NCBI GenBank assembly: GCA_014896635.1 | Contig: JADBKA010000174.1 | Coordinates: forward strand, 1-9,879 | From: Ktedonobacteraceae bacterium | GTDB taxonomy: Bacteria; Chloroflexota; Ktedonobacteria; Ktedonobacterales; Ktedonobacteraceae | DNA length: 9,879 bases | Reading direction: 5' to 3' | In this document: positions 2,402-9,406 of the stretch, in pieces | Numbering within the stretch: the first letter of the stretch is position 1 | Layout of the letters: each line of letters begins with the position of its first letter | Program-made: the position numbers and the translations under genes | The notes under the pieces: model-generated | Told to the model about the DNA's origin: nothing | Databases searched by the model: none | What the model saw: only the letters and a program-made list of their open reading frames with translations

Positions 2402-2434
2402 ATTTTAGTCCAGAATATTTTATATGTCAAGTAT
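2402..2434 (-). promoter_or_regulatory. Sigma-70-type promoter of the monooxygenase/reductase gene, copy A of a shared 32-bp element
   Basis: On the minus strand TTGACA (complement of 2425-2430) is followed by exactly 17 bp and TAAAAT (complement of 2402-2407). The predicted start point is near 2395, giving a leader of about 43 nt before the ATG at 2352. The block 2403-2434 matches 9375-9406 upstream of marR at 26 of 32 positions without gaps. Invariant parts are ATACTTGACAT and AATATT as well as the -10 box. Conservation extends beyond the core hexamers, so an operator for a shared regulator is likely, by inference the adjacent MarR protein. Confidence 0.8.
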
Positions 2435-2473
2435 CTAAAAGAAGGACCAGAAAGCGGCGCTAATCCCATCATA

Positions 2474-2482
2474 TGGTATACT
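2474..2482 (+). promoter_or_regulatory. Possible extended -10 (TGGTATACT) for the hydrolase gene
   Basis: TGG plus TATACT forms an extended -10 on the plus strand, 127 nt before the hydrolase ATG. No recognisable -35 box sits at the right distance. It overlaps the left arm of the inverted repeat at 2478-2497, which would place a repressor directly over the start site. This is a candidate only. Confidence 0.4.
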
Positions 2483-2497
2483 CTTCCTCAAGAGTAT
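2478..2497. repeat. Perfect inverted repeat, 8-bp arms with 4-nt spacer, probable operator
   Basis: ATACTCTT (2478-2485), spacer CCTC, then AAGAGTAT (2490-2497) is a perfect dyad. There is no T-run after it, so it is not an intrinsic terminator. Its overlap with a candidate extended -10 makes an operator the likeliest role. A short mRNA hairpin in the leader is the alternative if transcription starts further upstream. Confidence 0.6.
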
Positions 2498-2608
2498 GGC
2501 AGCGTTTTCCGGGAGAGAGGCTGAAGATGTTGCCGCCTTATCGTACTGGCTGTGTAATTGTATTGTAAAGAGGACAACTGGACGCAGGAGTCAGAAAGGA
2601 ACCTATCC

Positions 2609-3412
2609 ATGCCTACTATTCTCACCAACGATGGTGTCAGGCTTCACTATGAGGAAGCCGGATCGGGCAAGCCACTGCTGCTGGTCGGGGGATGGACCAT
2701 GAGCATTCCCTGGTGGCAAAAACAGATTCCAGCACTGAGCGAGCGGTATCGAGTGATCGCAGTGGATATGCGTGGCTACGGGGAATCCGAGAAACCGACA
2801 CACGGACACCGCGTTGCGCGTCATGCAAAAGATATTTACGACATTATTGAGGGGCTTGACCTTCAAGATGTTGCTCTCATGGGCTGGTCTATGGGCGCCT
2901 CAACTATTCTCAGTTATCTCGATCTCTTCGGTTCCCACAAACTCAGCGGAGCTATTCTGGTAGACCAGACGCCGAAAATCCTGGTTGATGCCGGGTGGAA
3001 GTACGGCATGGGCGAGACAACCTCTGAGACGCTGATGGCGTTCATCGCGCCCATCCGTGCTAACTATGCCGTCTTTGCAAAGGGTTTCATTCCCGTCATG
3101 TTTACCAGACCGCCAACCGAAGAAGAACAGCAGTGGATGCTGGCCGAGATGCTGAAAATGCCCGTAGAGAGCGCCACAACTGTGCTCTTTGACCATTGTA
3201 ATCAGGACTGGCGCGACCTGCTGCCCACTATCAAGCTGCCTGTGCTGGTGCTGACGGGCAAGCAAAGCCAGGTCTTTCCCTATCAATCAAGCGTGTGGAT
3301 GAGCGAGCAGATTCCTGGAGCGAAGCTCGTCATTTTTGAGCACAGCGGGCATTGTCCTTTCTATGAAGAGGCCGAGAAGTTTAATGCCGCTGTTGTGGAT
3401 TTCCTCGGCTGA
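2609..3412 (+). CDS. Alpha/beta-fold hydrolase, substrate unknown
   Basis: This 267-residue protein starts at the ATG at 2609, chosen because AGAAAGGA lies 8 nt upstream; an in-frame ATG 17 codons earlier has no homologous-looking sequence. It has the single-domain alpha/beta hydrolase layout: N-terminal strand with LLLVGGW (oxyanion region, 24-29), DMRGYGES (53-60), nucleophile elbow GWSMG (Ser94) and catalytic-type His248 in EHSGHCPF. The place after strand 7 where the acid is usually found reads GKQSQVFP, with Ser220 where Asp is common. Asp119 in LVDQTP, at the end of the preceding strand, may serve instead. The closest general resemblance is to non-haem chloroperoxidase/esterase-like hydrolases. 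In this cluster it could hydrolyse a CoA thioester or a ring-opening intermediate, or act as an N-formylkynurenine hydrolase, but it lacks the HGGYW signature of alpha/beta-type formamidases. There is no signal peptide. The function remains unassigned. Confidence 0.85.
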   Translation: MPTILTNDGVRLHYEEAGSGKPLLLVGGWTMSIPWWQKQIPALSERYRVIAVDMRGYGESEKPTHGHRVARHAKDIYDIIEGLDLQDVALMGWSMGASTILSYLDLFGSHKLSGAILVDQTPKILVDAGWKYGMGETTSETLMAFIAPIRANYAVFAKGFIPVMFTRPPTEEEQQWMLAEMLKMPVESATTVLFDHCNQDWRDLLPTIKLPVLVLTGKQSQVFPYQSSVWMSEQIPGAKLVIFEHSGHCPFYEEAEKFNAAVVDFLG

Positions 3413-3556
3413 TCTCAAGGCGTGACTCCCATGCTTTAAGGAAATTGTGAAATTGAAGGATATACTGCTCTGCCTGCGACCTGCTCTGGTTTGACCCGTC
3501 ACGGCTGGCTGTGCGACAATGCCGGCAAATAGCATATGCAGAAGGAGCAGAGCAGT
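3413..3556 (+). promoter_or_regulatory. Regulatory gap with candidate promoter (TTGACC, 18 bp, GACAAT) for the hydratase-SDR pair
   Basis: Within this 144-bp gap, TTGACC (3491-3496) is followed by 18 bp and GACAAT (3515-3520), with TG two bases before the -10 (TGC at 3512-3514), an extended -10. A start near 3527 would leave a leader of about 30 nt with AAGGAG at 3542-3547. Also present are a tandem GAAATTGT/GAAATTGA (3441-3456), a second possible -10 TATACT (3461-3466), and the repeats listed separately. The gap indicates the hydratase-SDR pair need not depend on the hydrolase promoter. I see no terminator after the hydrolase. Confidence 0.5.
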
Positions 3557-7895: not shown

Positions 7896-8687
7896 TCAAT
7901 CTCCCTTGAATTCCGGCGGTTGCCTGGCGACGAACGCTTCATAAGCGCGGCGAAAGTCCTGTGTTTGCATGCAGATAGCCTGCGCTTCAGCTTCAGCCTC
8001 GATAGCCTCGTCCAGGCCCATTGCCCACTCCTGATGCAGCATCTTTTTCGTCATGGCATGGGCGAACGTGGGGCCGCTGGCGAGGCTGGCGGCCATCTCC
8101 TGCGCTCTGGGGAGCAGCTCTTCTGGCGGGTAGAGCGCATTAAAAAAGCCCCAGCTCAGTCCTTCAGTGGCGGAGAGTGTGCGCCCGCTATAGAGCAGTT
8201 CGGCTGCGCGACCCTGTCCAATGACGCGCGGCAGAAGCGCGCAGGCGCCCATGTCGCAGCCGGCCAGCCCGACGCGCGTGAAGAGAAATGACGTTTTGCA
8301 CTCTGGCGTCCCATAGCGCAGATCTGAGGCGAGCGCCAGCATCGCGCCCGCGCCGGCGCATACACCGTCAACGGCGGCGATAATCGGCTGCGAACAGGCT
8401 CGCATAAACTTGACAAGTTCACCGGTCATGCATGTGAATTGCAGTAGCTCAGGCATGGTCATGCGCGTCAGCGGGCCGATGATCTCATGCACATCACCAC
8501 CGGAGCAGAAATTGCCGCCGGCTCCGGTGAGCACAACGGCCCTGATTGTGCTGTCATGGACAAGATCGCGGAAGAGATCGCGCAGGGCCGCATACAACTC
8601 GAAAGTCAACGCATTCTTCTTCTGCGGGCGATTCAACGTGATGGTGGCGACGCTGCCTGCCACCTGCCATAAAAAGTGCTGTGTCAC
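7896..8687 (-). CDS. Crotonase-fold protein, isomerase- or hydrolase-like (lacks both hydratase glutamates)
   Basis: This 263-residue crotonase-superfamily protein begins with GTG at 8687, supported by AAGGAG 8 nt upstream. The oxyanion features CSGGD (61-65) and CAGAG (110-114) are present. At the two positions of the hydratase glutamates it has Met116 and Arg138, so simple water addition is unlikely. A single acid, Asp145 in GLAGCDMGACALLPR, falls where the catalytic Asp/Glu of several other crotonases lies, for instance enoyl-CoA isomerases such as PaaG and 4-chlorobenzoyl-CoA dehalogenase. A double-bond isomerisation or a ring-opening reaction on the non-aromatic CoA intermediate would suit the pathway. 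It is the first gene of a tight three-gene operon with the acyl-CoA dehydrogenase and ligase, and follows marR by 99 bp. Confidence 0.88.
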   Translation of the reverse strand: MTQHFLWQVAGSVATITLNRPQKKNALTFELYAALRDLFRDLVHDSTIRAVVLTGAGGNFCSGGDVHEIIGPLTRMTMPELLQFTCMTGELVKFMRACSQPIIAAVDGVCAGAGAMLALASDLRYGTPECKTSFLFTRVGLAGCDMGACALLPRVIGQGRAAELLYSGRTLSATEGLSWGFFNALYPPEELLPRAQEMAASLASGPTFAHAMTKKMLHQEWAMGLDEAIEAEAEAQAICMQTQDFRRAYEAFVARQPPEFKGD

Positions 8688-8733
8688 GACCTATGCTCCT
8701 TCATGCAACGTGGTGGCGTCCATACAATAGAAT

Positions 8734-8774
8734 CAGCTAAAGAGCTGTTTATTTTTATAGAAAACGTGAAACAG
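8734..8774. repeat. Two overlapping small inverted repeats upstream of the crotonase-dehydrogenase-ligase operon
   Basis: CTGTTT (8745-8750) and AAACAG (8769-8774) form a 6-bp dyad with an AT-rich 18-bp centre. CAGCT (8734-8738) and AGCTG (8743-8747) form a 5-bp dyad with a 4-nt spacer. They lie in the 99-bp gap between marR and the operon. I find no consensus promoter here; the best -10-like string, TATAAA (complement of 8754-8759), lacks a good -35. The operon may be read through from marR. Arms this short can arise by chance. Confidence 0.35.
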
Positions 8775-8786
8775 GTTACTCCATTG

Positions 8787-9287
8787 TTAGCCTGTTGAGG
8801 CGCTGATGTGCTGCTTCAGTTTGCCGAGCAAGTCATAGAGCTGGTGTTGTTCCTGTTCGGTCAGACCGCTCATCCAGTCATTGATCCAGGTGGCGTGTAC
8901 AGTTGCCATCTGCTCGAAGATGATGCGGCCTTTAGCAGTAAGACGTACGATCTTGGCGCGGCGGTCTTCGGGCGGCGTGATGCGCTCAACCAGGCCATCG
9001 CGCTCCAGGTTATCGGTGATGCCGGTGACGTTACCGCCTGAGACCATCAGGCGCTGTGAGAGTTCGCCCATGCTGATGCCATCGGGGAAGCGGGCGAGCT
9101 GCGCCATCAGGTCGAAACGGGGAAGGGTTGTATCAAATTCGCTACGCAGCCGACTGCTGACCTGGTTCTCAATCAGCGTTGTGCAACTGAGCAGGCGCAG
9201 CCATACGCGGAGAGCGTCATGCTCTGCCGATGCGTGCTTCGTAGAAGAGAGCGTATCGCTTGTCGAAGAAGCATCTTGAGAGGTCAT
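8787..9287 (-). CDS. MarR-family transcriptional regulator
   Basis: This 166-residue protein is a MarR regulator, which as a dimer binds palindromic DNA through a winged helix-turn-helix. The core runs from ISMGELSQRL (helix 2-3, 71-80) through SGGNVTGITDNLERDGLVER (recognition helix, 83-102) to the wing TPPEDRRAKIVRLTAKG (104-120), with dimerisation helices at both ends. The start at 9287 follows AAAGGAG 12 nt upstream. A longer in-frame start at 9395 is rejected because it would fall inside the promoter. The first 23 residues are rich in Ser, Thr and Asp and look disordered. Its promoter shares a 32-bp element with the monooxygenase gene, suggesting autoregulation and control of the pathway. 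Several MarR regulators of aromatic catabolism (CouR, for example) respond to CoA thioesters; 2-aminobenzoyl-CoA as ligand is my inference. Confidence 0.9.
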   Translation of the reverse strand: MTSQDASSTSDTLSSTKHASAEHDALRVWLRLLSCTTLIENQVSSRLRSEFDTTLPRFDLMAQLARFPDGISMGELSQRLMVSGGNVTGITDNLERDGLVERITPPEDRRAKIVRLTAKGRIIFEQMATVHATWINDWMSGLTEQEQHQLYDLLGKLKQHISASTG

Positions 9288-9373
9288 TGCGCGGTGTTTC
9301 TCCTTTCGCAGGACTGCGTGCGGAACTTTGTTATCTATGAGCGTCGTGGGAGATCTGTATAATCTCTGCGAAC

Positions 9374-9406
9374 ATTTTAGATAAAAATATTTCACATGTC
9401 AAGTAT
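9374..9406 (-). promoter_or_regulatory. Sigma-70-type promoter of marR, copy B of the shared 32-bp element
   Basis: On the minus strand TTGACA (complement of 9397-9402), a 17-bp spacer and TAAAAT (complement of 9374-9379) form a near-consensus promoter. A start near 9367 leaves about 80 nt before the marR ATG. Block 9375-9406 aligns without gaps to 2403-2434. Within it TTCACATGTCAA (9391-9402) is a palindrome with one mismatched pair, a plausible MarR half-site arrangement lying over the -35 box; the equivalent in copy A is less symmetric. Confidence 0.8.

What the first reader, a model, noticed from the sequence alone, without database searches (positions are those of the whole stretch)
2402..9406. 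A 32-bp promoter-operator element shared by the monooxygenase/reductase and marR genes
2403-2434 and 9375-9406 match at 26 of 32 positions with no gap, both oriented into the downstream minus-strand gene. Each holds TTGACA, 17 bp and TAAAAT, and conserved bases outside the hexamers (ATAC before TTGACA, AAATATT in the spacer). Two unrelated genes sharing spacer sequence points to one regulator, most simply the encoded MarR. Copy B includes a near-palindrome, TTCACATGTCAA. The element would define a small regulon for dearomatisation of 2-aminobenzoyl-CoA.
Basis: partly seen in the sequence, partly recalled or inferred. Interest (0 to 1): 0.75.

Follow-up and report, generated by a model that had tools for sequence, protein, structure and literature searches.

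The report
Double MarR operator, anthranilate-CoA pathway
The two matching promoter elements are most likely paired landing sites for the repressor encoded next to them, and similar sites stand before the same anthranilate-breakdown genes in distantly related bacteria, so one simple switch can now be tested directly.

Summary
2402-2434 and 9374-9406 (both minus strand) match at 27 of 33 positions; the shared pattern is found in none of 200 shuffles. Each element is two 12-bp palindromes (TTTAGNNCTAAA type), centres 15 bp apart: one over the -35 box, one over the -10 box. The palindrome came from de novo motif finding on promoters of the same monooxygenase gene elsewhere, window excluded. With it, the window's two best tandem sites are exactly these elements (20.6 and 20.3 bits, next 3.5). 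A second copy 15 bp away recurs in 9 of 21 one-per-genus promoters (shuffle mean 0.16). The site follows marR: in 17 of 18 genomes where marR was not found beside the monooxygenase, the best site of its locus lies at marR. It is not a promoter style: one near-match in 47 genomes of the class, again before marR. Best reading: MarR represses its own operon and the split-off monooxygenase gene. Binding is not shown; 2-aminobenzoyl-CoA as inducer is inferred. New member of a known kind.

The parts
2402..2434 (-). Element A: promoter plus tandem operator of the monooxygenase/reductase gene
2419..2430 (-). A, operator 1 (TTGACATATAAA on the minus strand), covering the -35 box TTGACA (2425-2430)
   Evidence: 13.4 bits with the window-free model, best single 12-mer of the window, but alone within chance (95% of shuffle maxima 13.8)
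2404..2415 (-). A, operator 2 (TTCTGGACTAAA on the minus strand), overlapping the -10 box TAAAAT (2402-2407)
   Evidence: 6.9 bits; tandem score with operator 1 20.3
9374..9406 (-). Element B: promoter plus tandem operator of the marR operon
9391..9402 (-). B, operator 1 (TTGACATGTGAA on the minus strand), covering the -35 box TTGACA (9397-9402)
   Evidence: 7.3 bits
9376..9387 (-). B, operator 2 (TTTTTATCTAAA on the minus strand), overlapping the -10 box TAAAAT (9374-9379)
   Evidence: 13.2 bits; tandem score 20.6, best of the window
82..2352 (-). 2-aminobenzoyl-CoA monooxygenase/reductase type gene (NCBIfam: salicylyl-CoA 5-hydroxylase/oxidoreductase), called abmA here
   Evidence: NF006101 1326 bits against cut-off 1078; FAD_binding_3 plus Oxidored_FMN
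8787..9287 (-). MarR-family regulator, proposed repressor
   Evidence: MarR_2, MarR above cut-offs; conserved recognition helix among orthologue-grade sequences
7896..8687 (-). enoyl-CoA hydratase family, second gene of the marR operon
   Evidence: NF006107 470 bits against cut-off 330
6720..7892 (-). acyl-CoA dehydrogenase family, third gene of the marR operon
5092..6723 (-). anthranilate (2-aminobenzoate)-CoA ligase type gene, fourth gene of the marR operon
   Evidence: best solved relative is named anthranilate-CoA ligase, 4wv3, E 1.5e-83; NCBIfam benzoate-CoA ligase family 373.5 bits, just under its cut-off 375.25
9510..9879 (-). kynureninase C-terminal part (source of anthranilate); the gene runs off the window, its promoter cannot be seen
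   Evidence: KYNU_C 9.8e-27
2588..5091 (+). three opposite-strand genes (alpha/beta hydrolase, enoyl-CoA hydratase, SDR) lying between the ligase and abmA
   Evidence: in L015 the ligase is followed directly by abmA

Best explanation
Elements A and B are two copies of one repressor operator laid over a sigma-70-type promoter. Each holds two palindromic sites (TTTAGNNCTAAA type) whose centres are 15 bp apart, one over the -35 box and one over the -10 box. [quoted passage not shown] The protein thereby represses its own operon (marR, enoyl-CoA hydratase, acyl-CoA dehydrogenase, anthranilate-CoA ligase) and the separately placed monooxygenase/reductase gene. An aryl-CoA of the pathway, most simply 2-aminobenzoyl-CoA made by basal ligase, releases it. 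Shown by sequence: the sites, their spacing, their conservation, their link to marR. Inferred: protein binding, repression, two dimers, the inducer.
For: Palindrome found de novo in 52 dereplicated abmA upstream regions without the window: log-likelihood ratio 264.9 (best of 40 starts) against 34.3-44.2 in 3 shuffled sets (best of 12 starts each). Window scan: the two elements are the two best tandem sites (20.6, 20.3), third 3.5; in 300 shuffles the best reached 13.9 and the second best 5.3. A second copy at +15 or -15 bp in 21 of 40 dereplicated promoters that have a primary site (52 tested) and in 9 of 21 with one per genus (32 tested; shuffle mean 0.16, maximum 3 over 500 runs); between 13 and 30 bp no other distance had more than 1. 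marR not beside abmA: best site of the marR locus lies at marR in 17 of 18 genomes; these promoters were not in the training set. Operator present in 62 of 65 loci of genomes with a marR orthologue and 2 of 10 without (Fisher 4e-7, relatedness not corrected). Only 4 further sites of 16 bits or more in 1.45 Mb of 80 loci, outside the scored operon promoters. In Cupriavidus genome G053 the tandem pattern with up to 1 mismatch has 2 forward hits in 8.3 Mb (reversed control 1): the abmA promoter and a place about 150 bases before a second ligase gene of this type. Two MarR dimers, each covering 15 bp on nearly opposite faces, are reported for the Rv2887-DNA crystal (PMC5526998, section 9).
Against: No binding or expression data. 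Single palindromes of the window are within chance taken alone (13.4 and 13.2 bits; 95% of shuffle maxima 13.8); only the tandem stands out. The second palindrome of each element is imperfect (6.9 and 7.3 bits), and 12 of 21 one-per-genus promoters with a site show only one. Of the four class relatives with a close abmA, G004 (L005) and G006 (L006) have neither operator nor marR orthologue, and 13 more distant class relatives (48-52% identity) show no convincing site (best tandem 8.8 bits). Three loci with a cis marR lack a site of 13 bits (L008, L013, L024), and two genomes without a found marR have one (L022, L037; metagenome bins, contigs ending soon after abmA). One of the 18 loci fails (L124, from a genome rich in TTTAAA-like repeats). 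The one Aromatoleum genome searched (L064) has neither operator nor an orthologue-grade MarR (best 29% identity).
Confidence: 0.8

Rival explanations
1. The element is only a strong promoter (TTGACA-17-TAAAAT with an AT-rich spacer), and the likeness reflects promoter style or a recent promoter duplication, not an operator.
For: Both hexamers match consensus well. In the closest relative abmA lies directly behind the ligase with no site before it, so A could be a copied B.
Against: One match of the 33-bp pattern in 47 genomes of the class. The palindrome keeps its form but sits differently relative to the hexamers in other lineages (read by eye). A resembles the G001 marR promoter (28 of 33) as much as B (27 of 33), so there is no sign of a very recent copy. 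A duplication would carry the operator with it.
Confidence: 0.08
2. The palindromes are an operator, but of another regulator (for example another MarR paralogue) that shares the site type.
For: Other MarR paralogues in these genomes have tandem sites of the same phase in front of them (L111, L112), so site types are alike within the family.
Against: The site lies at this orthologue in 17 of 18 genomes where it is not beside abmA and tracks its presence; the recognition helix is conserved.
Confidence: 0.08
3. The MarR dimer reads one extended palindrome (AATATTTNNNNNNAAATATT type), and the 15-bp tandem pattern is a side effect of AT-rich wing contacts. The regulator is the same; the number of dimers differs.
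For: The wider de novo motifs also show AT-rich flanks; more than half of one-per-genus promoters have a single palindrome.
Against: Whole 12-mers at exactly 15 bp pass the threshold in 9 of 21 promoters against a shuffle mean of 0.16. G001 has three in a row (read from the sequence; overlapping hits).
Confidence: 0.2

Closest known systems
CouR of Rhodococcus jostii (MarR repressor of hydroxycinnamate catabolism, ligand p-coumaroyl-CoA; PMC4737184, passages read)
   Same: MarR family; inverted repeat over the -35 box; repressor of catabolic genes; aryl-CoA pathway
   Different: Operator cATTGA--TCAATg; a single inverted repeat is described between couN and couR in the passages read; sequence similarity weak (5cyv, E 4.1e-5; that 5cyv is CouR comes from PMC5487221)
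Rv2887-DNA complex, said there to resemble the ST1710 complex (PMC5526998, passages and section 9 read)
   Same: Two MarR dimers on one 30-bp DNA, each covering 15 bp, nearly opposite faces: the spacing seen here
   Different: The Rv2887 site is GC-rich, only one of its two halves is palindromic, indirect readout is proposed; other targets and ligands
IadR (MarR_73) of Variovorax auxin degradation (PMC9613470, passages read)
   Same: MarR repressor of a pathway that ends in anthranilate
   Different: Ligand is indole-3-acetic acid, a different gene locus; the passages read give no operator sequence to compare
abm genes, 2-aminobenzoyl-CoA pathway (named for Cupriavidus necator JMP134 in PMC2842291; enzyme of Azoarcus evansii cited in PMC3534580; passages read)
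   Same: Same ligase and monooxygenase/reductase types
   Different: Neither main text contains the word MarR

Membership tests
MarR family transcription factor (the protein) | winged helix-turn-helix domain of MarR type | tested here: met
   PF12802 1.4e-13 and PF01047 6.6e-12, above cut-offs
MarR family transcription factor (the protein) | dimer binding a palindromic operator in its own promoter | tested here: inconclusive
   palindromes in its promoter, found also at unlinked orthologues; binding and dimer state not testable here
Autoregulated MarR catabolic repressor (CouR-like mode of action) | operator overlaps -35/-10 of the catabolic genes and of marR | tested here: met
   by sequence only; transcript starts not mapped
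Autoregulated MarR catabolic repressor (CouR-like mode of action) | release by an aryl-CoA intermediate | not testable with these tools
   inferred from the pathway
CouR itself | CouR box cATTGA--TCAATg | tested here: not met
   operator found is of TTTAGNNCTAAA type; box as given in PMC4737184
2-aminobenzoyl-CoA pathway gene set | two-domain flavin monooxygenase/OYE enzyme together with an anthranilate-CoA ligase type enzyme | tested here: met
   substrate not tested, and NCBIfam names the enzyme salicylyl-CoA 5-hydroxylase

The most novel reading that the evidence does not exclude
Palindromes phased at 15 bp are a general operator grammar of a large MarR clade: dimers stack along alternate faces of the DNA into a ladder of one, two or three units. 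In this operon the ladder recurs in Chloroflexota, Meiothermus and Betaproteobacteria and is found on both pieces where the operon is split. Other MarR paralogues in relatives' genomes (L111, L112) use the same phase with other half-sites.
Probability: 0.3. Interest if true: 0.6.

Novelty: new member of a known kind. Interest (0 to 1): 0.5.

Why it matters
It gives the CoA-dependent anthranilate pathway (an end of tryptophan/kynurenine and indole breakdown) a candidate regulator and a precise operator that recurs in three phyla. The regulon becomes predictable in other genomes, a 2-aminobenzoyl-CoA sensor can be tested, and the 15-bp phase offers a direct test of how MarR dimers stack on DNA.

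Tried and rejected
General promoter style: tested in 47 genomes of the class and rejected. The looser tandem pattern (up to 1 mismatch) is largely background in many genomes; forward hits against the reversed control: G001 14 and 9, G003 7 and 3, G005 37 and 29, G007 0 and 4, G064 90 and 202. It is used only where hits are few, and even there the control is not zero (Cupriavidus G051-G058: 1-3 hits, control 1-4). L014, from G064, is weak evidence for this reason; without it the one-per-genus count is 8 of 20. An operator before the plus-strand genes (2588, 3536): nothing above shuffle level (5.6 bits at 2558, 7.5 at 3453). Sites at 8748-8759 (10.9 bits) and 2367-2378 (9.6) are within chance. 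A second tandem hit shared by two Meiothermus genomes lies beside a regulator-like gene of another type (GntR-like, judged by eye) and is taken as unrelated. Literature: the listings of searches showed no paper on this regulator or operator; six papers were opened, the others judged by listing only, and subscription journals are largely not in that library. Structure prediction was not run: it would not decide binding.

Limits of the counts: 67 of 80 loci entered (13 left out by hand: no upstream sequence, masked bases, or abmA inside the operon); 52 after dereplication were used for training, so the counts are partly circular. In one search the best single site lies within 300 bases before abmA in 56 of 77 loci with at least 120 upstream bases. 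In one search, 75 of 80 were used (L015, L016, L021, L026, L027 dropped), and for 9 Massilia-type loci the stretch before the ligase was scored, a choice made. The 15-bp phase was first seen by eye, window included, and then tested without the window. One search printed '12 of 24 one per genus', but five Meiothermus loci were still in; one search gives the true one-per-genus figure, 9 of 21. Genomes are otherwise not corrected for kinship. The 18 loci: marR was absent from the fetched abmA locus (up to 10 kb each side); in three (L048, L055, L072) the abmA contig ends soon after abmA, so linkage cannot be excluded there. The start of marR is approximate.
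Full report
What is there. The window carries a CoA-dependent anthranilate pathway. On the minus strand lie a kynureninase end (9510-9879), marR (8787-9287), an enoyl-CoA hydratase, an acyl-CoA dehydrogenase and an anthranilate-CoA ligase type gene (5092-6723), and, after three plus-strand genes, a two-domain flavin monooxygenase/reductase (82-2352). The closest relative found is a Ktedonobacteraceae metagenome bin (L015, 82% identity); the window's own genome is not held.

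Minus-strand 2402-2434 and 9374-9406 match at 27 of 33 with no gap, and the flanks do not match (15 and 11 of 60). The shared pattern, with up to 3 mismatches, occurs twice in the window and in none of 200 shuffles. Both hold TTGACA-17-TAAAAT.

The operon elsewhere. A genome scan with the monooxygenase gave 80 loci, by their titles from Chloroflexota, Meiothermus, Betaproteobacteria and others. In 33 of 80 the order monooxygenase, marR, hydratase, dehydrogenase, ligase is complete on one strand, in 45 the first four genes; in 6 a kynureninase lies behind the ligase. In the closest relative, marR, hydratase, dehydrogenase and the start of the ligase lie on one contig, and ligase then monooxygenase on a second whose end overlaps the first by 399 bases at 97% identity. 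So in the window the monooxygenase gene is parted from its partners by opposite-strand genes and has its own promoter, element A.

The operator. Motif finding on 52 dereplicated upstream regions of the monooxygenase, with the window left out, returned a 12-bp palindrome TTTAgaCnTAAA (log-likelihood ratio 264.9 against 34.3-44.2 in three shuffled sets, which had fewer restarts). The window's two best tandem matches to this model are 9376-9402 (20.6 bits) and 2404-2430 (20.3), the third is 3.5, and 300 shuffles gave at most 13.9 for the best and 5.3 for the second best. Single palindromes of the window (13.4, 13.2) are not significant alone. Each element is thus two palindromes: one over -35 (TTGACATATAAA, TTGACATGTGAA) and one over -10 (TTCTGGACTAAA, TTTTTATCTAAA).

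The 15-bp phase. Around the best palindrome of each promoter, a second one appears at +15 or -15 and hardly at any other distance from 13 to 30: 21 of 40 dereplicated promoters with a primary site, 9 of 21 with one per genus, against a mean of 0.16 (maximum 3) in 500 local shuffles (one search shows the whole profile). The marR promoter of the closest relative has three in a row (sequence). Rv2887 offers a structural precedent: two MarR dimers on a 30-bp DNA, each covering 15 bp, on nearly opposite faces (PMC5526998, section 9 read).

The operator follows MarR. In 18 genomes (Cupriavidus, Ramlibacter and others) a marR orthologue exists but was not found in the fetched monooxygenase locus. In 17 of them the best palindrome of the marR locus (mostly 3.4 kb) lies within about 100 bases of the approximate marR start; these promoters were not used in training. 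Of 75 scored loci, the operator is present in 62 of 65 with a marR orthologue in the genome and in 2 of 10 without (Fisher 4e-7, without correction for kinship and partly circular because many of these regions trained the model). The misses are L008, L013 and L024; the two against the trend are L022 and L037, on contigs that end soon after the monooxygenase. L005 and L006, from the same class as the closest relative, and the one Aromatoleum genome (L064) lack both. Thirteen more distant class relatives (48-52% identity) show no convincing site.

The regulon looks narrow. The 33-bp pattern has one match with up to 3 mismatches in 47 genomes of the class, before marR of the closest relative. In 1.45 Mb of loci only 4 other sites reach 16 bits. 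One stands between an ABC-transporter binding-protein-like gene and an aldo/keto reductase-like gene in L003 (judged by eye). In Cupriavidus genome G053 the tandem pattern has two forward hits (control 1): the monooxygenase promoter and a place about 150 bases before a second ligase gene of the anthranilate type (61% to the window's).

How it most likely works. MarR dimers sit on both palindromes and cover -35 and -10, so RNA polymerase is kept out of the marR operon and of the monooxygenase gene. When anthranilate arrives (kynureninase is next door), basal ligase makes 2-aminobenzoyl-CoA, which frees the DNA. The inducer is inferred by analogy to CouR and FerC, which respond to aryl-CoA thioesters (PMC4737184 and PMC5487221, passages read). 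Position over the promoter argues for repression; no experiment shows it.

Standing. The protein is a MarR by Pfam. It is not CouR: the operator differs and sequence similarity is weak. MarR orthologue-grade sequences, 84 records of which 70 distinct, keep the recognition helix with few changes (Meiothermus differs at one position). Eight paper searches listed no description of this regulator or operator in the library held; subscription journals are mostly outside it. I file it as a new member of a known kind, with an operator of wide reach and a phase that deserves a structural test.

Noticed in passing
L112 1501-1527 and L111 445-471: Tandem palindromes at the same 15-bp phase (0 and 1 mismatches to the pattern) stand in front of other MarR paralogues (44 and 46 bits to this one), suggesting a wider operator grammar in the family.
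   Followed up: partly
L003 about 5087 (4915 bases before abmA): A single operator TTTAGGTCTAAA lies between a LivJ-like ABC binding-protein gene and an aldo/keto reductase-like gene (judged by eye); a possible aromatic-acid importer in the regulon.
   Followed up: partly
L166 (G053:C187:10500-13000) about 1244-1270: Tandem operator before a second anthranilate-CoA ligase type gene whose start reads in two frames.
   Followed up: partly
window 2588-5091: An opposite-strand block (hydrolase, enoyl-CoA hydratase, SDR) lies between ligase and monooxygenase; in the closest relative these two are adjacent.
   Followed up: partly
L001, L006, L008: Records titled Proteobacteria bins carry a monooxygenase gene 73-78% identical to the window's; the genomes of L001 and L006 (G002, G006) came up in the search of the class of G001, so those titles may be wrong.
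   Followed up: no
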